Shown here: piece by piece, positions 51,320 through 62,604 of the stretch
How the letters are laid out: each line of letters opens with the position of its first letter
How positions within the stretch are numbered: the first letter of the stretch is position 1
Assembly: GCF_000002875.2 (NCBI RefSeq)
Contig: NC_009413.2
Span: 811,823-875,822, forward strand
From: Leishmania infantum JPCM5
Lineage: Eukaryota; Euglenozoa; Kinetoplastea; Trypanosomatida; Trypanosomatidae
Direction of reading: 5' to 3'
Length of the DNA: 64,000 bases
The notes under the pieces: model-generated
The model's input: the letters and a program-made list of their open reading frames with translations, nothing else
Database searches by the model: none
What the model was told of the DNA's origin: nothing
Program-made: the position numbers and the translations under genes

Positions 51320-53026
51320 TCACGCAAGCGTCTTCGAGTACATGTCGTTTCCCTTGTCATCGACGACAATGAACGCAGGGAAGTCCTCGACCTCGATCTT
51401 CCACACCGCCTCCATGCCGAGTTCCGGGAAGGCGAGGCATGTTACCTCCTTGATCGAGTCCTTGGCGAGTATGGCCGCTGGACCGCCAATGCTGCCGAGG
51501 TAGAAGCCACCGTGCTTCTTGCACGCGTCCGTCACCTGCTTGCTGCGGTTGCCCTTGGCGAGCGTGATGTAGCTGCCGCCGTGCGACTGAAAGAGATCGA
51601 CGTAGGAGTCCATGCGGCCGGCCGTCGTCGGGCCAAAGGAACCAGAGGCGTGGCCCTCCGGCGTCTTGGCGGGCCCGGCGTAGTAAATAGGCGACGTCTT
51701 CATGTACTCTGGCAGCGGCTCGCCGTTATCCATCATCTCCTTGATCTTGGCGTGGGCAATATCGCGGGCCACGATGAGGGTGCCGTTAAGCATCACACGG
51801 GTACCGACCGGGTATTGGCTGAGCTGCTGGCGCACTTCGTCGATGGGGCGCTTCAGGTCGACGTTCACGCTCGTGGTGCTCAGGCGCACTTCCGGGATGT
51901 CGGGCAGGTACTGCGCCGGGTTCTGCTCAAGCTGCTCAATGTAGATGCCGCTCTTGTTGATGTGCGCAAGAATCTGGCGATCAGCGCTGCAAGACACCGC
52001 AAGGCCCACTGGGCAGGAGGCACCGTGGCGGGGCAGCCGAATCACGCGCGCCTGGTGGGCGAAGTACTTGCCACCAAACTGCGCTCCAATCCCGCTCTTC
52101 TGCGCCACCTCCATCACGATCTTCTCCCACTCAGGGTCGCGAAAGGCGCGGCCGTACTTGTCGCCAGTGGTCGGGAGCGAGTCGTAGTAGCGGCAACTGG
52201 CCAGCTTCACCGTCTTCATGGTCATCTCCGCGCTCGTGCCGCCGATGACGAGGGCGATGTGGTACGGCGGGCAGGCAGCCGTGCCGAGGGTCTTGAGCTT
52301 CTCCTCGATGAAGGCGCGCAGCGATTTGGGGTTCAGCAACGCCTTGGTTTCCTGGTACAGGTACGCCTTGTTTGCCGAGCCGCCGCCCTTGGCAATGAAG
52401 AGGAACTCGTAGTCGCTTCCGGGCACCGCGAGCAGGTCGAGCTGGGCGGGAAGATTGTCGCCGGTGTTGCACTCCTTGAACATGTCCAGCGCGGCAGTCT
52501 GGCTGTAACGCAGGTTGTGGTACCTGTAGGCGTTCCATATACCCTTGGACAAGTACTTCTCATCCTCGCCCCCGGTCCAGCAGAGCTCGCCACGCTTGCC
52601 GAGCACGATGGCCGTGCCGGTATCCTGGCACGACGGCAGCACCCGACCTGCCGCGATGCAGGCGTTCTTCAACAGCGTCATGGCGACGTAGCGGTCGTTG
52701 TCGGAGGCCTCGGGGTCCTCGATGGCGCGACGCCAACCCTCCAGGTGGTCCTTGCGGAAGAAGTGGTGCACATCCGAGAAGGCGCGGTGGGCGAGGATAG
52801 TGAGGGCCTCGGGGTTCACTTTCAGCACCTTGCGCCCGAACACCTCCACCTCCTCCACGTACTTCTCGCTCCCCTCGACCTTGGCGAACTCGGTTTGGTG
52901 GTGGTGCGGGTCGGTGGGCTGAAAGATGGCGGAGAAGTGGAAGTCTGCGTTGACAGCGGACGCGTCCTCGATGTCCTTGATGCCCGCACGGCGGCACCCG
53001 ATCTCGCAATGGTCGCACAGAGACAT
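51320..53026 (-). CDS. FH-2: class I iron-sulphur fumarate hydratase, cytosolic/glycosomal type (FH-2)
   Basis: The product is 568 aa from the ATG at 53026 ([20 protein letters not shown]); the open frame upstream is not fumarase-like. It converts fumarate to malate through a [4Fe-4S] cluster held by three cysteines. Those residues are present at Cys133 ('[12 protein letters not shown]'), Cys252 ('[14 protein letters not shown]') and Cys346 ('LAVSCSADR'), the positions reported for the Leishmania major enzyme. Other conserved parts are '[15 protein letters not shown]', '[20 protein letters not shown]', and the C-terminal domain '[20 protein letters not shown]' and '[20 protein letters not shown]'. 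No mitochondrial presequence is present, so it is the non-mitochondrial isoform. The C-terminus KTLA is not a canonical PTS1. In trypanosomatids this isoform feeds malate and fumarate metabolism and pyrimidine synthesis. The identification is essentially certain. Confidence 0.98.
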
Positions 53027-53870
53027 GATATACACTACTAGAGTGGAGTGTGGATGGGAAACACAAGACGCCGAAGAAAACGGAAGAGAAGAGGTGCAGT
53101 TAAAGCGAGTTTTGATACTGTGACGGCTGCAGTGAGGTGCGCATGCGAGACAGACGTCGTGGCGAACGCAGCGAGGGGCAGCGGCCACGCCGGCGTGATA
53201 GGTCGACCAGAGAATGATGGGGAAGGGTGGTGTGTGTGCGTGCGAGAGAGAAAGTGAAGCAAAAAGGAAGTGAAGAACAGTGTCGCAACGGCAAAGCGAA
53301 GAGGAGGGCGCGGCGAATGAGCGGCCACGGCGCCCTGCGCGTGCGCGTTCGGCCTTCTCTCTCTCTCTCGCTCTGGGCGCGCCCCCTTCCCCTCTTACAC
53401 GTCAGCGGCATACCTCGACGGTGCCTCGTTTCGCTGATCACGCCCCGGATCACTTGCTCGGTGAACGTTGAGCAGACCCCGTCTTGGCACGTTCTTTCTG
53501 TGAGCAGTATGACCTCTTCTCTTTCCGTATTCGCTCACGCCATCCGTCAGCGCAACGCGAGGGCGGTGATGTGTGCACACTGAAAGGAGGGGGTGGGATG
53601 GAGGTACGCAGGTGGGTGGCTCGACATGGTGACCTTCAACACTTCCGCCCCTTTCGCTTGACCCCCCATGCTACCAGCATGCGTCGCTTGCGCATCAACG
53701 CGTTGCAGTTAGCGCGTGTGCGCGGCTGACCACCACCGCCCCACTGTTGTCGACAGCGCTCGTTGCATCTGCCACGCCTATTGCCACGCACGCATCGCAC
53801 TCCGCTGTGCACGGTCATGCTTGCACCACTTGCTCTGCCGTCCACGTGACTCTGTCGTCGGTGCACAGGT
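53027..53870. other. intergenic between fumarase and the ligase relic
   Basis: Spacer with GA-rich and CT-rich stretches. A possible continuation of the ligase relic (second BRCT) was looked for and not convincingly found. Confidence 0.45.
53035..53095 (-). promoter_or_regulatory. candidate spliced-leader acceptor of the fumarase mRNA
   Basis: On the minus strand a pyrimidine tract ('cctcttctcttccgttttct' and 'ccatccacactccactct') is followed by the AG at 53039-53038 and another at 53036-53035. That would leave a 5' UTR of about 10 nt before the ATG at 53026. This is pattern-based only. Confidence 0.45.
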
Positions 53871-54007
53871 GTTAGATGCCACCTGTCTGTCCTACGAGGG
53901 CACCGTCTGTGAGGCAAAGCACGGCACGTGGCGGCACGGCATCTCCGCCACCGCAGGCTGGCGCTTCACCCATGGAGGTGGGGCCTCCGCGCTCGCACAC
54001 GTGGCAG

Positions 54008-55960
54008 TCACCTGCAGCACCGTTTTCGCTGCCCGCAGCACGGGGGGGCATGGACTGGCGCTGAGAAACGCCGCCGCTGCTTCTTGCAGAGATGCGGCAC
54101 GTGAGGTGGGCGAGGCGGACACATGAGCCGCCGTTCGTGACTGCCACTCAGGAGAGCTTGTGCGCTGCCCTTGGCCAAGGCAATAGCGGCGAACATCTTC
54201 GATACCGCTGGCCGCCCAGAGACACCGTCCAGCCCAAGTTCGTGCCGGCAAGCGTGAACTCGACGCGCAAGGACGACCACTGGATTACTCTCAGCATCTG
54301 AAGGTGCACGCCCTTGTGCCTCCCTCTGGTGGACGCGCGCGACAATGAGGAGGGAGCCGCGTTGGCTCATCGCCATGCAGAGGGTCGTGCCAGGCATCTT
54401 CGTCTTGCAGGAGCGGCTGCCGTAGAGCATGTGCCTCGGCGTCCACAGCAGCACCGCGACTGCCTCTACGCAGTCCACCAGCCACTGAGAGTGTGCTACG
54501 CCCGCAGATGCACACTTGGCACTCACATACGCCGTCTTGCTCTCACAGAGCTGAACCCGGTTGACCAACTTCGTTTCGCTAACGCTGTTGGAGATAAGCA
54601 GCGGCCTGATACGAGTCGGGTTCGCCAGGACTTCGCCTCCTTGCCGCTGCAGCTGGTGCTCCACGACTGCCCGGTCGCTCAGCAACGACATCGCAGCCGC
54701 GCTACGGTCGCCGTCACTTACCTCTGCTGCACCCCGTCACCGAACGCCGCCATGCCTCGACGCTACCAAAGGCGACGTAGTGAGCGCCAAACTCGAAGCC
54801 GCTGAGCCAGCAGCTCACCACCTCCTCTGGCCGAACGCCTCGCATCCTCCTCAGGGGACCGGAGAACCCAGCCGCAAACGACTGCGACTACACCTGCGCG
54901 GCGGCGACGAGCAAGGCCATCGCGGCAGGCCCAGACATCGAGCTCTCGCCATCGCCGATAGTTGACGGTGTCTGTCCCGATGCCGGCGCGGAGGCCGGGC
55001 TTGTCGCTACTGATGCTGCTGTCGGCGTGTATATTTCACGGAGGCGTTTACGCTTCACAAACTCTACCGCAAGAAGCTCGTCTCGCGTCTCCGCGAGACA
55101 CCTGTGCGGCATGTGCTGAAAGGCCTCCAGTATGGCAACCGGGTGCGACACGTAGGTGGTTTCTATGACTCTTTTGTTCGCCGCAGGCAGAGCATCAGCA
55201 GAAAGCGGAGGGAGAGGCCAGTGCAATAACGCAATGAATCCGTGAAGGCGTACTCAAAAACTTCGGCCACCACCAAATGCCGGGGGTGCACGTACACGTC
55301 AGGCGCTAGCTCCGTCTCTGTCGGCAGCCACTCGCCCAGCCAGGGTGAGACGGTCTGCTTGGTGAGCATGCGCTCCCAGCGCAGGTCGGGGGCGGCTTGC
55401 AGAGCAGCGAGGCCCTTCCTCACGTGCTCGGTCTCAACCCTGCATACGTCTTGGGAGACAGCCCGTTCCACGTCCCTATCGTCGTCGGCTCTCCCTCGCA
55501 GTGGACTCGTCAGCAACAAAGTCGTGCAAGTTCAAGCGGCCAAACGTCGCGCAATCGTGGCCGCCTATGACCACCAAGTCGAGCGAGCCCGCCAAAGCGG
55601 GGAGGTGGCCCGGCTTCGGTTTCATCCATGCAAGCTGGCGCTCGGCTGGCCCGCGCACGGGATATGTGCCGTTTGCACAAGAACGTCCTCACGCTTCGCC
55701 TCCACGGCCTTCTCCAGCTCGGCCATGATCGCCGCCGTGATGCCAACCGCTTCGGCGGTGATAACCTTGAGGTGGGTAAACTGCGCGATCAGCACCTACC
55801 GCCGCTGCCGCCGCCGACGATGCGTCAGGGCAACCTGCAGCAGCGGCTCCCCGTTGAGGAGCGCAAGATCAAACACTACCAAGTGAGCCCAGAGCCGCCC
55901 CCCTCCCTCCCATCTTCGACGGTGCCCTCGACATCTGTCGCGGTGGAGTCGAAAAGGTGC
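54008..55960 (-). pseudogene. LIG4: DNA ligase IV-like pseudogene, 5'-truncated and frameshifted
   Basis: Successive minus-strand frames match ligase IV in order. Motif IIIa 'VVFDLALLNGEPLL' (about 55880-55840) is followed by an in-frame TAG (55798-55796). Then come 'AELEKAVEAKREDVLVQ' (55720-55673), equivalent to the LIG4 motif IV '..KREEGIMVK', and after a frame change motif V 'WMKPKPGHLPALAGSLDLVV' (55628-55567). After another frame change come 'DVCRVETEHVRKGLAALQAA', 'PDVYVHPRHLVVAEVFEYAF' and 'CTGLSLRF'. A further frame at 55226-54888 contains 'VSHPVAILEAFQHM'. A BRCT domain lies at 54691-54400 ('VVEHQLQRQGGEVLANPTRI', 'AHSQWLVDCVEAV', 'WTPRHMLYGS'). At least one stop and about four frame changes break it. 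The N-terminal half with the KxDG lysine motif is not found, and motif IV has Gln for Lys. A ligase core plus C-terminal BRCT is specific to LIG4. The second BRCT is not clear. Confidence 0.82.
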
Positions 55961-56816
55961 GCTAGCCGCAACGACCGCTAAATGAGGAGTAATGGCACTG
56001 CTGACCACGTGCGATGGGGCCTCCAGCGTATACTTGTGCATGCCTATCGGTTTCTATATGTGCGGGCCTCTCGTTGACTGTTTTGTGTGCGCGAAGGATG
56101 CGCTCTTGAGCGAACACGCAACACGCCGCCAAGGCAACTTCAGAAACGAAGCGAGGAGGGAGAGTGGTGCGTGATGGACATCTATATGTGGAGAAGGCCT
56201 GGTGGTGCTGGTGATAGTGGTGGGGCCGAGAGCGGCGAGCGAGACGTGGGAGGAGTCGAAGAGAGATAACGAGAAAGAGGTGAGTAACAGATAGATGCTG
56301 ACGAGGCAAGGGAAGACTTGGCATGAGCCGCCGATGCGCATCTGCGCATACGTTTTCGCGGCGACACGGGGTGGGGGTTCGCCTGCTCTTCCGCAGGTGT
56401 ATTGGACGGATGGCGCATTCGCGGCCTTTTCTTTGTTCTTTCTTTTGCTTCGTGCTAGCGCGCCGCAGTTGAGCAGGTCGATGGATGGATAGAGGGGAGC
56501 GGCGTGCGACAACGGCGTCCTCCCTTTTGTTCGACGTAGGCATGGAAACGGAGGCAGAAGAAGAGCTGAAAATGCGCACACAGAGCGCAGTGCAGTGCAG
56601 TGCCGCAACCACCGGCGAAACCAACAAAAGCCACACGTACAGCACAGAGACGCAGGCGACACGGCACGCGCTACATTACGGAGTGCATGTCCGTTTTTTT
56701 TTTCTCGAATCACGGTCCGGCACGCGCACGGCGCGCAGGCGGACTTCATGCATCGCCCGAGATGGGCTCTCCTGCCCCGTCGTTGTCCACTTTGCGCTTT
56801 CTCTCTTGGGTTCTCC
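55961..56816. other. intergenic between ligase relic and coiled-coil gene
   Basis: No trace of the missing ligase N-terminus was seen. Composition is UTR-like, with pyrimidine tracts on the transcribed strand. Confidence 0.45.
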
Positions 56817-59800
56817 TCACTGATACGGCACACGGAACAGCACTGGTAGACGCGACCTCAGGTAGTCAGCGGATTCGGCCAGCTCTCGCAACTCCTGAAG
56901 TTGCTCCTCAACCGCGATTCGCACGTGGCGTTCGTCCTTGCCGCGCGCCCCCTCGCAGGCTGCCGCCATTTCTCGCAAACCGTGCTGCNNNNNNNNNNNN
57001 NNNNNNNNNNNNNNNNNNNNNNNNNNNNNNNNNNNNNNNNNNNNNNNNNNNNNNNNNNNNNNNNNNNNNNNNNNNNNNNNNNNNNNNNNTTAGCACCTTT
57101 CCACCACTTCGGTTTCTTCTATCGTCGACCTGGTCGTCGTCATCGCGGTTGGTGAGCGCCTGCGCTATCTGAGCGTCCCGCAGTGCTCTCCGCAGCTGCG
57201 TGTTCTCATCCTCGGCGTGCTCCAGACGAGCCAATACATCCACGCGAGCCGCTTTCGCATCCACCAGCGCGGCCTCCAACTCCGCCTTCTCGAGCTTCAG
57301 CTGCTCCCGCTCGATTGCGCGTGGACGCAACATGCTGTTTTCCAGCGTCAACACCTCCGTCGTCTCCACAAGCTGCTGCACCGCTCCGCTGGCCATATGT
57401 CGGCCGTAGAGGTCCCAGCTGTTCGTCACCTGCGCGCGCAGTGATGCCATGTCGCAGCGCAGTTCGCCGAGGGAGCTATGAAGGATGTCTTGCAAGTGCT
57501 GCTGATGTGCGTTGGCACGCTGAAGAGCTGCCTCCACATACGCCGTCAGCAGCTCTCCCCGCTCTTTCAAGGCAGCGAGCAGGTTCCTCTGCATCCCAGC
57601 GAGAGGAACGCGCCGGTATGGCGTACCGGGCAAGCTGCGCAGGGTGTGTACGAGCGCGCCGCACAGCACGTTACGCTCATGCTCAAGCGATGCCAGCTTC
57701 GCCGTCAGCTGCGCCACGTTACGCTTCTGAGCATCGGTCTCGCCAGACACGCTGGCCATTTCGCTCGCGAGGCGCACCTGCTCTTCTTCGCGACGAGCAA
57801 TCATCGCACGAAGCGCCTTCGCTTCCTCGCTGAAATCGCTCAGCAGCATATTGCTCTGTAGACTGCGGCGCGCCAGGTCCTCTTTCAGCGAGTCTCGCTC
57901 CAGCTTCAGAGAGCGAACCACGCCGCACAGCATATGCAGCCGCGTGCCGACGGTGACGTTGAGCAGAGTGCTGCGGTAGCCCGCGAGGGCCTCCTCCGTC
58001 TCTGGCAGCACCTGCTTGAGATCCACGATCTGTGTAGTCAGCAAAGCCATCAGCGCCTCCCCGTACTTGGGCGGCTTCTCTGCCTCGTCGCCCTTGACAA
58101 GGCGGCCCTCCAGAACTTGCAGGATTGCGCAACACGTAAAACGAAGGTTTTGCAAGTCGCCGATGCGCTCCCGCACTGTGGTCATGGTGTCCTGTAGCAC
58201 ACTGGCGCAGCCACCAGGGCGCCGCGACGTCGTCTTCTTGCGACCCTTCATTTCTTGCTGCATGAGACGTAGGCCCTTCTCCGGGGTGCACTGAAGGGCA
58301 GGTAACGGCTTTCGCTTCCGCTTCAGCGAGCGCTGGGTTGAGGACGTAGTGGAGAGCGAGTCGTCATCGCTGAAGGCGTGGTTCAGTCCGATCAGTATCC
58401 GCTCCGACTCCTGCTTCACCTCTTGCAACTCCTGCACCTTGGCGCCAATGAGCGGCAGCACATCACTCAGCTTCAGCGGCTTGCCGACCCCCTTCATCGA
58501 GCTTTCGCAGGAAGCGCCGCTGACACCATCCCCGACGCCCAGCAGCTGCTTCAGCTCCTGGACTGATGCGCCCGTCTCCTCGCATATTGCCTCCAGACGG
58601 GTGGCGAGCATGCGACTGTCTACACACCCAGCCTGTGCCCCAGCCTGCGTATGGCGCTTGAATGCAGTGCCCTTCGTCGCTGCGGCGGCCATGGGCAAGC
58701 TCGCGCTGTCTCGGCGCTCCATGCTGTTCAACACATTTATTTCCCCTTCATCGGGCGTGCCACCAAGGGCAACGATGCCGTGTACGACGGACTCCGACAG
58801 ATGCTGCAAGCAGTTCGCCATGTCCTGCACATCTGCCACCAGCGACAGCAGTCGCTTCGTCGCAGCCGCGTCAGTGCTCGCCATATCGAGCGGCCCTTTA
58901 ACTTTTGCGCGACAGAACGGCGATCCGGAAGAACGCATCTCCACCAACGGTCGCGTGAGAGCCGCCATTTTTTCCATCTCCTCCAGCGCCTGCGCCACTT
59001 CAGCACAGGATGCCCGCAAGGCTCGGTCGAGAGGCGACGATTCGGCGCCGTCTTCGGACGAGCTCGGTGCCAATTGATGTTCTTCGGGAGCAGCAGCCGC
59101 GGCAGCGGACGACCATGGCTTCAGTTCCACAAGCGCCTCCAGCACGCCTGCCGTCGGCTGGTCCTTCACCACTGTGAGCCTGTCGATACGCGCACGCTGC
59201 TCCACCGCGCTGTCGTTCACACGGGCAATGAGGTCGTACAGGAGGACAAGGCGATCGTGCAGCTCCGCCACAACCTCCCAGGTGGATGGATCGGCACCGT
59301 CGAAGCGGACGCTGTGACCCACAGACGTTGCTGCCGACTCCGCACGGGGTGCGCCTGCTGCTCCTCCATCCACACTGAGTTCCCGCAACCTTTGCACCGC
59401 CATGTTCTCGCGCAGGTGCTGCTGTACCAGCAGCTTCCCCATCGCGTCGTTGCTGTCTAGTTGCAACAAGTACTCCAAGTACTCGGACGGGTCGCTGCCG
59501 CGGGTTAGCGTCGGTGGCGGTCTGTCGGGTACTTGCTGAAGTGTGAGCGACCTCTGCAGCGACCGCTCCCGCGCTGCTGCAGCACTCGCATTATGCGTCA
59601 AGTGATGCAGACGCGTCAAGCAGTCCCGCAGTACATCGCGCAGGAACACACCAATGGCATTGTTTCTGCGATTCGCCTCTTCAACAGTCGATAGCTGCCT
59701 CGCCAACTCATGGTGCGCAACAGCGGCCGTCTCGATAGCGTCGTGCGCGGAGCGAAGCTGGGCCTCCAGCTCCGCGACGGCAGCTTCATAATCCGCCCGC

Positions 59801-62604
59801 TGCCGCTGCAGGTCGTCGACGTGCCGACGCAGCACCTCTCTCCTTTCGTCACTCAACGAGTTTTCCGACGCGGCTTCGGCCAGCTGCCTTCGCAGACTCT
59901 TCACCTCCTCGCACAACCTCCGCGTCGCCTCAGTCTGTGATTTCAGTGCCATATCCTTCGCCTTGGTGTCCTCCTCCAGCTCGTTTCGCTCCTTCTTGAG
60001 ATCCCTGCAGTCTTGCGCGCTCTGCGCTGCCTCCCGTTGCAGTTCTCTTAGCTGCCTCTGCAGATCCTTCTCGGCGACGCTGCGGCCCTTGCCGAGGTCG
60101 TCGACATGCTTCTTTAGAGCTCTCTCGCTGGCTTTGGTGCGTGTCGCCGTCTCCTTCAGCTCTGCCTGCAGCCGCTTCTTCGCCTCTTCGTTTTGCAGCT
60201 CCGACACAGCGAGGGCCTTCAGTTGCTCTTGAAGTTGGCGCACCTGCGCTCGCGCCCGCACAATGGCGTCGACAAGAGAGTTATCGGCAACCCCTTCAGA
60301 GCTCCTAAGCGTCTCTGCGGCTACCGCCGCCGCAGCCGTCAAGGCTCTTGCCACCGCCTCGGCGGTTGAAGGGTGTATGGAACCGCTGCGTGACGCCTCT
60401 GCTCCTCCTGCTTCTGAGTTGGATGTCTCCGGTGCAACCGTAGACCTGTCAGGGCGGCTCCTGCGTGCCGCAGAAAACCGCACTCCTTTTTCTCCACAAC
60501 GGCTCTTGCCTATGGCGACTTCTATGATTTCTTGAGCACTCTTCGTCAGACCGTCAAACTCATTCGTCGGCGCACTCGACTGCGCCGCCGCTGCTCGTTG
60601 CTGCGCTTGCAAGCACAGCTCTATGAGCTCTGTGGGCTTTCGATCGCCCTTGGCCGCCAACTGCCCGGCGCTACGGCGTGCTACTTCGACCTGCTCAGGC
60701 GTAGCCACGGCGTCGTCCTGCGGCGCCCTGTGCTGCCTTCGCGCCAACAGAGCTGCAGTCCTCTGACTCATGGTCGACGGCGGTGTGGCAGGAGGGGGTC
60801 GCAGAATGGCGACTGAGGTGTGCACCACCGCAGCATACTGCGCAATATGCTGCAGGTCGTCGGCATGTGCGGCTTCTAGGTCTCGGGTGCGGTGCCACAG
60901 CCGCTCCAGGGCCACGCTAACCTTCTCCGACGCGCCTTTGCCGGACCACAGCGATGTCAGCACCAGTACCGCGTCCATGTTTTCGCAGAGGGCACGCAGC
61001 GAGTCGGCGATGTTGGCTGATCGACTGGCACGCTCTTCAACCGACTCCTGCGGCTTCGCCATAAAGTTGGTGTTCGTAGCACCGCGGCCGCCGAACGCGT
61101 CGAGGGCGCGGAGCGCAGCACCCTGCAAGTTCGCCACCTCGTCCGCGGATCGCTTGCCGTCCTGGTGCATCGCCTGAATGGCGCCGGCTAAAGCCTTGGC
61201 GTCCTCTACAAGTAGCCGCGGCAGCTTCTGGTAGTCGATGAAGGTTGCATCCGCCGGGGAGGCTGGAGGGCGAATCGATGGCGGTGTCGCCTTTCTCACC
61301 ACCGGGGCCGCTGACGAGGATCGGGCAAAGGTCACAACCGCTGCACCGGAGCACCGGCCGCCGCCCGTGCTGCGAAGCGCAGACTGCGGGCCCGGCTTGC
61401 TGGGCCCGTCTCCCACGCGCGAGGTCGTCAGCGACGGCCCGCAGCTCGACTCCCAGTCGGAATCGGCTGGGGAGACCACTTGCAGCAGCGAAGATGCCGC
61501 TGCCAGAGTGCTACGCACCGTCTGCGCTGCCGAGGCGAGCTCATCGCGCTGAGCCTTGATGGTGGTGGCCTCCATCTCTTCGCTGAGTCGCTCGTGCAGG
61601 TGCGCAGCACACTCCTCGAACGATGCGGGCGGCGTAGGCATTTTGGCTATCAATGAAAGGGATACGAGTGTGTCGCCCACAGCGCGCAGCAGGGCCTCGG
61701 CAGCGTCCTTCGACTGGCGGGCGCTCTTCAGCAGGGTTTCGGAAGACGGCGGCCGTGGCGGCGGTGGTTTTGAGGCACCTGAGGGACTGCAGGGGTTTGC
61801 TGCAACGATGCTCCACTTGCGCAGCGAGCGCAAACGCAGACTCGACGGTCCCTCCAGGAGCCTCACCGCTTGCTGCATCGCCTCACGCAGTTCGTTGACC
61901 TCCCTTTGGCGCTGCTGCTCCGAGGCGCCGATGTCGCCGCGGCTGACCTCCAGGTCATTCTGCAGCCCTGACTGCTGCTGAAGAGCCGCATGGAGCTGAT
62001 CACGTAAGCCCTTTGTCTCACGCACGGCTTTCTGTAACTCCTGCTGCAGCTTCAGATTTGCATCTTCCAGCTCGGCAATCTCGGCGGCGCGGTGCTTCCT
62101 TGTCTGCATGTTGTGGAAGCGCCACCACCTGAGTAGCGTGCGGCTGCGCAGTCGTTCCTTGTTGAGCGCCTCGAGCAGCTCTACGTTGGTGACGGTGCGC
62201 TGCTTACGCTCCCGCACATGTGCGCGCCACTTGGCGAAGTACCGACGTGCCAGGGCGAGGAAGTCCGCCTTGGACCGCAGCGGCACGTCTTGACGCACAC
62301 GAATGGCCGATCGCACATTCTCGGAGGTTCGCATTTGGGTAAAGGCGAGCCACCGCATGAAACACCGAGTGTACTCCTGACGAAGGGAGTTGTGCTTCAG
62401 CATCGTGGAGCACCGCTTCAAGTGCGTCTGCAATCTGCGTTGTCGGATGGCAGCCGCCCACGCCGAGAAGGCCCGGCTTGCATGCAGAAGCTCGTTGCTA
62501 CGGCCCAGCAGTCGCGCTGTGTGTAGCTGCGTCGCACCCTCTGTGGCCGCCACCACCCCTGTCGGTGACCTACCACGCCGTGCGCTCCTCGGCGATGCGT
62601 GCAT
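56817..62604 (-). CDS. giant coiled-coil protein with SFI1-like Trp repeats (about 1.93 kaa, interrupted by an N gap)
   Basis: The start is the ATG at 62604 (MHASPRSARRGRSPTGVV). Residues about 40-185 carry Trp-containing repeats spaced like SFI1/centrin-binding motifs: 'AFSAWAAAIRQRRLQ', 'CFMRWLAFTQMR', 'YFAKWRAHVRERKQ' and 'LLRWWRFHNMQTRK'. From residue 190 to the C-terminus it is mainly coiled coil rich in Glu, Leu, Ala, Arg and Gln, with Ser/Pro-rich breaks. A 101-base N gap (56989-57089) interrupts it. Read in the frame preserved by counting the Ns it would stop at 56908. A different frame after the gap instead reads 'LREMAAACEGARGKDERHVR', 'IAVEEQLQELRELAESADYL' and ends 'RSRLPVLFRVPYQ' at 56817, which is clearly coiled-coil coding. 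I take 56817 as the true end. Centrin-binding or basal-body localisation is inferred from the Trp repeats. Confidence 0.9.
56989..57089. other. assembly gap (101 N)
   Basis: Run of undetermined bases within the coiled-coil gene. Its length is not in phase with the coding frame on both sides, so it is probably a placeholder length. Confidence 0.98.

What the first reader, a model, noticed from the sequence alone, without database searches (positions are those of the whole stretch)
54008..55960. Relic of a DNA ligase IV gene in a lineage thought to lack classical end joining
Seen in the sequence: consecutive minus-strand frames contain, in the right order and spacing, ligase motif IIIa (VVFDLALLNG), a motif IV block with the LIG4-type context (AKREDVLVQ), motif V (WMKPKPGH...LDLVVIGG), the OB-fold end (CTGLSLRF) and a BRCT domain (QWLVDCVEA...TPRHMLYGS). 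These are separated by a stop and about four frame changes. Established knowledge: only LIG4 combines an ATP-dependent ligase core with C-terminal BRCTs and a KREEG-type motif IV; ligase I and the kinetoplast ligases have no BRCT. Trypanosomatids are generally described as lacking LIG4 and XRCC4 although Ku is kept. Inference: an ancestor of this organism had LIG4 and lost it recently enough for the remnant to be readable, so loss of classical end joining may be later or more repeated than assumed.
Basis: partly seen in the sequence, partly recalled or inferred. Interest (0 to 1): 0.92.

Follow-up and report, generated by a model that had tools for sequence, protein, structure and literature searches.

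The report
Dead DNA ligase IV gene, Leishmania
A Leishmania-like chromosome still carries the broken remains of the gene for DNA ligase IV, the enzyme that seals chromosome breaks in classical end joining, and whole copies of that gene survive in relatives, although this parasite family is described as lacking the enzyme.

Summary
Minus strand 55909-53730 is a pseudogene of DNA ligase IV (LIG4). LIG4 profiles built without its two nearest relatives single out five unjoined reading-frame pieces among 1323 six-frame segments (best E 5.2e-20 and 5.5e-19); a ligase I profile finds two of them weakly. The remnant matches residues 488-1219 of a 1228-residue intact orthologue, with about 9 frame changes and 4 in-frame stops. 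The first two fifths, with the catalytic lysine, are not detectable. At 30 columns invariant in 19 other LIG4s it keeps 19; two living orthologues keep 30.

The larger result: full-length LIG4 exists in a living trypanosomatid, as an unremarked 'DNA ligase-like protein' of Novymonas esmeraldas, sister of the Leishmania clade; four more full-length copies, organisms not named, branch with it. Papers up to 2025 say that trypanosomatids, or Leishmania and Trypanosoma, lack LIG4. The loss here is therefore later than the split from Novymonas. How recent it is, and whether other Leishmania share it, could not be tested.

The parts
53730..55909 (-). LIG4 pseudogene (whole detectable remnant), matching residues 488-1219 of P0002
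   Evidence: Frame-tolerant alignment: 350 of 681 matched codons identical, 4 in-frame stops, 9 frame changes; score 1266 against null maxima of 66 and 62
55655..55909 (-). Catalytic-domain piece with motif IIIa and a decayed motif IV, interrupted by a stop
   Evidence: 50 of 84 codons identical to P0002; LIG4 profile E 0.0022 and 5.8e-4 for the two open pieces
55518..55649 (-). Catalytic-domain piece with motif V
   Evidence: 26 of 44 codons identical to P0002; LIG4 profile E 5.5e-10
55181..55513 (-). OB-fold piece
   Evidence: 60 of 111 codons identical to P0002; LIG4 profile E 5.2e-20
54720..55178 (-). Spacer between OB fold and BRCT domain
   Evidence: 58 of 139 codons identical to P0002
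54422..54715 (-). First BRCT domain
   Evidence: 52 of 98 codons identical to P0002; LIG4 BRCT1-linker profile E 5.5e-19 on segment 54011-54736
53730..54419 (-). Linker and poorly conserved C-terminal tail
   Evidence: Five collinear blocks, 104 of 205 codons identical to P0002; tblastn E 7.5e-6 for 53740-53907
55915..56820 (-). Interval where remains of the first two fifths of the gene would be expected; none detected
   Evidence: N-terminal parts of 5 intact orthologues score no better here than shuffled proteins (17 to 46 of 60 reach the score) or random window pieces (14 to 30 of 40); elsewhere in the assembly P0003 matches only the ligase I gene at E up to 1
51320..53026 (-). Flanking gene: fumarate hydratase 2
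   Evidence: PDB 5l2r, 1298.7 bits, 558 of 568 identical by my count of the printed alignment; Pfam fumarase domains
56908..62604 (-).
   Evidence: ORF of 1898 codons; no Pfam family over its cut-off

Best explanation
The locus is the decayed remnant of a LIG4 gene that this organism's ancestors inherited vertically within Euglenozoa. Shown: homology, order of domains, no detectable first two fifths (with the catalytic lysine), about 9 frame changes, 4 stops, and replacement of residues that none of the other 21 aligned LIG4s has replaced. Inferred: the ancestral enzyme sealed double-strand breaks held by Ku, as LIG4 does elsewhere; the gene died in this lineage after the split from Novymonas; nothing useful is made from it now. 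The assembly keeps two Ku-domain genes and two other ligases (a ligase I type and a shorter one that I take from recall to be the kinetoplast type), so Ku lacks its usual sealing partner and end joining must use another ligase. Intact LIG4 in Novymonas implies that classical end joining may still run in some trypanosomatids.
For: LIG4 profiles without P0002 or P0003 hit only this locus below E 0.01 among 1323 segments. Intact orthologues P0002 (E 1.6e-82) and P0003 of Novymonas (E 1.5e-76); the other 9 of 11 hits are at 2.7e-3 or worse, three of them named ligase I. P0003's best PDB match is DNA ligase 4 at 273 bits, against LIG3 121 and LIG1 107; Foldseek ranks 1-12 for its predicted fold are human LIG4 or end-joining-complex chains. 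Tree: 24 LIG4 rows plus the remnant against 6 ligase I rows, 100/100; remnant with P0002 and Novymonas, 100/100, on an end branch of 1.12 against 0.11 and 0.28. Invariant columns: remnant 19 of 30, living orthologues 30 and 30; at 85 columns 46, against 81 and 81. No second copy found. Two Ku-domain genes; two other ligase-core genes.
Against: Pfam on the joined pieces gives only a sub-threshold ligase match (15.3 bits, cut-off 26.2), and BRCT_2 at E 0.27 on the ORF. Even in the intact P0002 and P0003 the Pfam BRCT matches lie below the curated cut-offs and the LIG4-specific PF11411 is not listed. The PDB search with the joined pieces put ligase I marginally above LIG4 (24.0 against 23.5 bits), though LIG4 aligned over more of it (42-268 against 40-154). 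Four stops are fewer than a simple neutral simulation gives at 0.2 substitutions per site (mean 11, range 2-21), so the gene may be younger than that, or frame changes hide stops. No reads and no second Leishmania genome were available.
Confidence: 0.95

Rival explanations
1. The gene is alive and the breaks are assembly or sequencing errors.
For: The assembly has a run of N about 1 kb away, so local quality is not perfect; no reads were available.
Against: The N-terminal two fifths are not detectable here or elsewhere, and 11 of 30 residues invariant in 19 other LIG4s are replaced; scattered base-calling errors would not do both. The remnant's end branch is about ten times that of P0002.
Confidence: 0.02
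2. A dead duplicate of ligase I, ligase III or a kinetoplast ligase, not LIG4.
For: Single-sequence search of the joined pieces matches ligase I about as well as LIG4; a ligase I profile finds two of the pieces at E 2.1e-4 and 8.5e-4.
Against: A BRCT domain follows the OB fold in the same collinear locus; the LIG4 profile gives E 5.2e-20 on a piece where the ligase I profile lists nothing up to E 5; tree with LIG4 at 100/100; the organism's own ligase I is an intact gene elsewhere. Ligase III and kinetoplast ligases were not in the tree.
Confidence: 0.01
3. LIG4 entered a trypanosomatid ancestor from outside and was later lost, rather than descending vertically.
For: Presence among trypanosomatids looks patchy in the protein search, which only reaches proteins that share exact words with the query.
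Against: The trypanosomatid rows nest inside rows that look bodonid- and then diplonemid/euglenid-like, with the remnant beside Novymonas, as vertical descent predicts; organism names are known for few rows.
Confidence: 0.03

Closest known systems
DNA ligase IV (LIG4/Dnl4) of animals, fungi and plants
   Same: Order of DNA-binding domain, nucleotidyltransferase core, OB fold and BRCT1 in the intact orthologues
   Different: The window copy is a pseudogene without a detectable first two fifths; the kinetoplastid-type intact copies show no detectable second BRCT (weak test) and PF11411 is not listed for P0002 and P0003
Novymonas esmeraldas 'DNA ligase-like protein' (P0003, 1171 aa) and the unnamed P0002 (1228 aa)
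   Same: Orthologues; remnant 51% identical to P0002 (350 of 681) and 45% to P0003 (337 of 750, doubtful upstream extension included) over matched codons
   Different: Full length, catalytic motif residues kept
Ligase I and the shorter ligase of the same assembly
   Same: Share the ATP-dependent ligase core
   Different: Intact, on contigs C30 and C26; the remnant does not group with this ligase I; the shorter ligase was not in the tree

Membership tests
DNA ligase IV | LIG4-type ligase core and OB fold by profile | tested here: met
   Four pieces hit by a profile built from 19 LIG4s, E 5.2e-20 to 0.0022
DNA ligase IV | BRCT domain C-terminal to the OB fold | tested here: met
   E 5.5e-19 with the BRCT1-linker profile; Pfam alone is below cut-off
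DNA ligase IV | Placement inside the LIG4 clade | tested here: met
   100/100 against 6 ligase I rows; no LIG3 row was included
DNA ligase IV | N-terminal DNA-binding domain and motif I lysine | tested here: not met
   No remnant above null upstream or elsewhere: the window copy is a relic, not a working member; present in P0002 and P0003
DNA ligase IV | One open reading frame | tested here: not met
   About 9 frame changes and 4 stops; the database proteins P0002 and P0003 are full length
DNA ligase IV | XRCC4-binding segment between the BRCTs (PF11411) | tested here: inconclusive
   Not listed for P0002 or P0003 at E up to 1; of 9 other rows scanned, listed at E up to 0.01 in P0016, P0022, P0024 and P0026, over cut-off only in P0024; not scanned on the remnant alone
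DNA ligase IV | Second BRCT domain | tested here: inconclusive
   Kinetoplastid-type tails score at most 5.8 bits with a tail profile, but a Drosophila LIG4 scores only 8.0; low model confidence there
DNA ligase IV | Ku- and XRCC4-dependent sealing of breaks | not testable with these tools
   No experiment; Ku-domain genes present; the XRCC4 search is uninformative because no control rang
DNA ligase I | Grouping with ligase I; no BRCT | tested here: not met
   Tree; BRCT present

The most novel reading that the evidence does not exclude
Classical Ku-LIG4 end joining still works in several living trypanosomatids, including the closest relatives of Leishmania; it was lost several times independently, once inside the Leishmania lineage after Novymonas and perhaps after the P0002 organism split off, so Ku in Leishmania is a leftover of a pathway that died late rather than at the root of the family.
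Probability: 0.6. Interest if true: 0.9.

Novelty: new member of a known kind. Interest (0 to 1): 0.82.

Why it matters
Papers treat the absence of LIG4 as a trait of trypanosomatids and call the retention of Ku without it an anomaly (PMC6635534, passages and one section read). A LIG4 pseudogene in a genome that keeps Ku, and intact LIG4 in Novymonas, turn that into a loss that can be dated within the group. The question 'why is Ku kept?' becomes testable by comparing break repair in species with and without LIG4; Novymonas is reported to be amenable to genetic manipulation (PMC8406214, passage).

Tried and rejected
Pfam and PDB searches with the joined pieces do not separate LIG4 from ligase I; the LIG4 profiles do. 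The first protein search returned one ligase I at E 2.6; its length limit (1.75 times 604) shut out P0002 and P0003. Scans of viral contigs and genome contigs with the P0003-P0002 alignment, two peptide patterns each, found no relative (45 and 147 pattern matches, none confirmed). A possible upstream extension to 56156 seen with P0003 was dropped because N-terminal segments score no better than nulls. XRCC4 (PF06632) gave no match, but no control rang either. A Piwi search gave one match on C21; I recall that Viannia species carry a further Argonaute, which would argue against that subgenus; not pursued. The structure comparison has high rmsd, and by Z ligase I chains (33.0) come within 2 of LIG4 (34.6), so it supports 'ligase' more than it decides the type. 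Left out of the tree: P0035-P0037 and the ligase-I-type hits P0005 and P0008-P0011. The grouping of the remnant with P0002 apart from Novymonas is firm when mapped through P0002 (100/98; AU p 0.007 against P0002+P0003) but not when mapped through P0003 (86/86; p 0.057, and 0.27 for remnant+Novymonas).

Full report
What is there. The window lies in an assembly of 32.07 Mb in 75 contigs (G000:C29). The neighbouring gene at 51320-53026 matches PDB 5l2r, fumarate hydratase 2, with 10 differences in 568 residues (my count on the printed alignment); I recall that 5l2r is the L. major enzyme. The genome is therefore taken to be a Leishmania close to but not identical with L. major; no tool names it.

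Observation. To test them without joining pieces, I built profiles from 19 LIG4 proteins, leaving out the two nearest relatives P0002 and P0003, and searched all 1323 six-frame segments of at least 30 codons. The core/OB profile hit four segments, all within 55166-56053 on the minus strand (E 5.2e-20, 5.5e-10, 5.8e-4, 0.0022); the next segment was at E 3.5. The BRCT1-linker profile hit 54011-54736 (E 5.5e-19); the next was at 0.91. A ligase I profile hit two of these segments, at 2.1e-4 and 8.5e-4, and nothing else below 0.75. The locus is LIG4-like well beyond chance.

Relatives. A protein search with the remnant pieces gave 11 proteins at E up to 10 among 7995 scored candidates. Two were full length and strongly related: P0002 (1228 aa, unnamed source, E 1.6e-82) and P0003 (1171 aa, Novymonas esmeraldas, named 'DNA ligase-like protein', E 1.5e-76). 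The other nine were at 2.7e-3 or worse; three of them are named ligase I. A search with the alignment of the two gave 27 proteins at E up to 0.001, again among 7995 scored candidates, including P0013-P0015 at 43-46% identity to P0003. P0015 carries a product name in a style that I recall from the Angomonas deanei annotation; its organism is not shown.

Are the living genes LIG4? P0003's best PDB matches are DNA ligase 4 (273 bits), then ligase 3 (121) and ligase 1 (107). Catalytic motif residues (K338, D340, E413, D460, E519, K524, K541, K543 in P0003; motif names recalled) are invariant in the 21-row alignment. BRCT1 is found in 11 of 11 kinetoplastid-type rows tested, at 69-106 bits, with a profile from nine other LIG4s, although Pfam's own BRCT models stay below cut-off in P0002 and P0003. 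The predicted structure (mean pLDDT 69.2) has human LIG4 or end-joining-complex chains in Foldseek ranks 1-12; by VIA-align Z, LIG4 and ligase I are close (34.6 and 33.0).

Tree. With 31 rows, 24 LIG4 rows and the remnant separate from six ligase I rows at 100/100. The remnant sits with P0002 (100/97) and both with Novymonas (100/100); these three plus P0013-P0015 form a 100/100 group; other rows, which I take from their order and sources to be bodonid-like and diplonemid/euglenid-like, branch outside. In a smaller tree the link to P0002 rather than Novymonas depends on the alignment used, so only the placement within this trio is firm.

Decay. Against P0002 the remnant covers residues 488-1219: 681 codons matched, 350 identical, 4 in-frame stops, 9 frame changes. 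The score is 1266 against maxima of 66 in 12 shuffles and 62 in 12 other window stretches. The N-terminal part has no detectable remnant nearby (five orthologues, each against 60 shuffles and 40 random pieces) or elsewhere in the genome: of 6 matches to P0003 at E up to 1, 4 are this locus and 2 are the ligase I gene. At 30 columns invariant in 19 other LIG4s the remnant keeps 19, while P0002 and P0003 keep 30 each. At 85 columns invariant in nine kinetoplastid-type rows it keeps 46, against 81 and 81. At 219 columns invariant in P0013-P0015 alone it keeps 101, against 171 and 171. At the 462 remaining columns the remnant equals P0002 in 227, and Novymonas equals P0002 in 217. The remnant has thus changed conserved positions almost as readily as variable ones, as expected of a gene no longer under selection. 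A crude conversion gives 0.20 (0.10-0.37) to 0.25 (0.17-0.35) neutral substitutions per site since constraint ended; the low number of stops argues for the lower end.

Repair context. The assembly has two genes with Ku domains (open frames 869 and 994), a ligase I type and a second, shorter ligase, and one DRMBL-domain gene over the Pfam cut-off (I recall DRMBL as the SNM1/Artemis type). XRCC4 could not be judged.

Literature. [quoted passage not shown] 'jaculum' lacks Ku too. PMC8716037 and PMC4169256 say that LIG4 is absent from trypanosomatids; PMC12578213 (2025) says it for T. cruzi, T. brucei and Leishmania, and PMC9241504 for Leishmania. PMC8406214 places Novymonas as sister to Leishmania, Porcisia and Endotrypanum; the word 'ligase' occurs once in its main text, for tRNA ligases. 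PMC9544060 reports repair that it attributes to end joining in Bodo saltans. Ten full-text searches of the open library listed no paper that, by title, abstract start or passages seen, reports a LIG4 gene or pseudogene in a trypanosomatid; one search listed 20 of 589. Supplements, preprints and most subscription papers are not covered.

Conclusion. A LIG4 pseudogene is established for this genome. That a full-length LIG4 is recorded for Novymonas is established at protein-sequence level; that it works in end joining there is inferred. Independent losses elsewhere in the family follow if the published absences in Trypanosoma and others are right; those genomes were not searched here.

Noticed in passing
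P0002, P0003, P0013-P0021 (C-terminal tails): Kinetoplastid-type LIG4s keep BRCT1, but a second BRCT is not detected (at most 5.8 bits with a tail profile from nine other LIG4s; a Drosophila LIG4 scores only 8.0); possible loss or strong divergence of the XRCC4-binding half.
   Followed up: partly
window about 56989-57091: A run of 103 N lies inside the large neighbouring ORF (56908-62604), so its 3' end and frame are uncertain.
   Followed up: no
G000:C21:130645-131592: A single Piwi-domain match in the assembly (open frame 1248), no second Argonaute-type match.
   Followed up: no
G000:C34:1278203-1278502: DRMBL domain over the Pfam cut-off in an open frame of 891 codons; a second match on C13 is below cut-off.
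   Followed up: no
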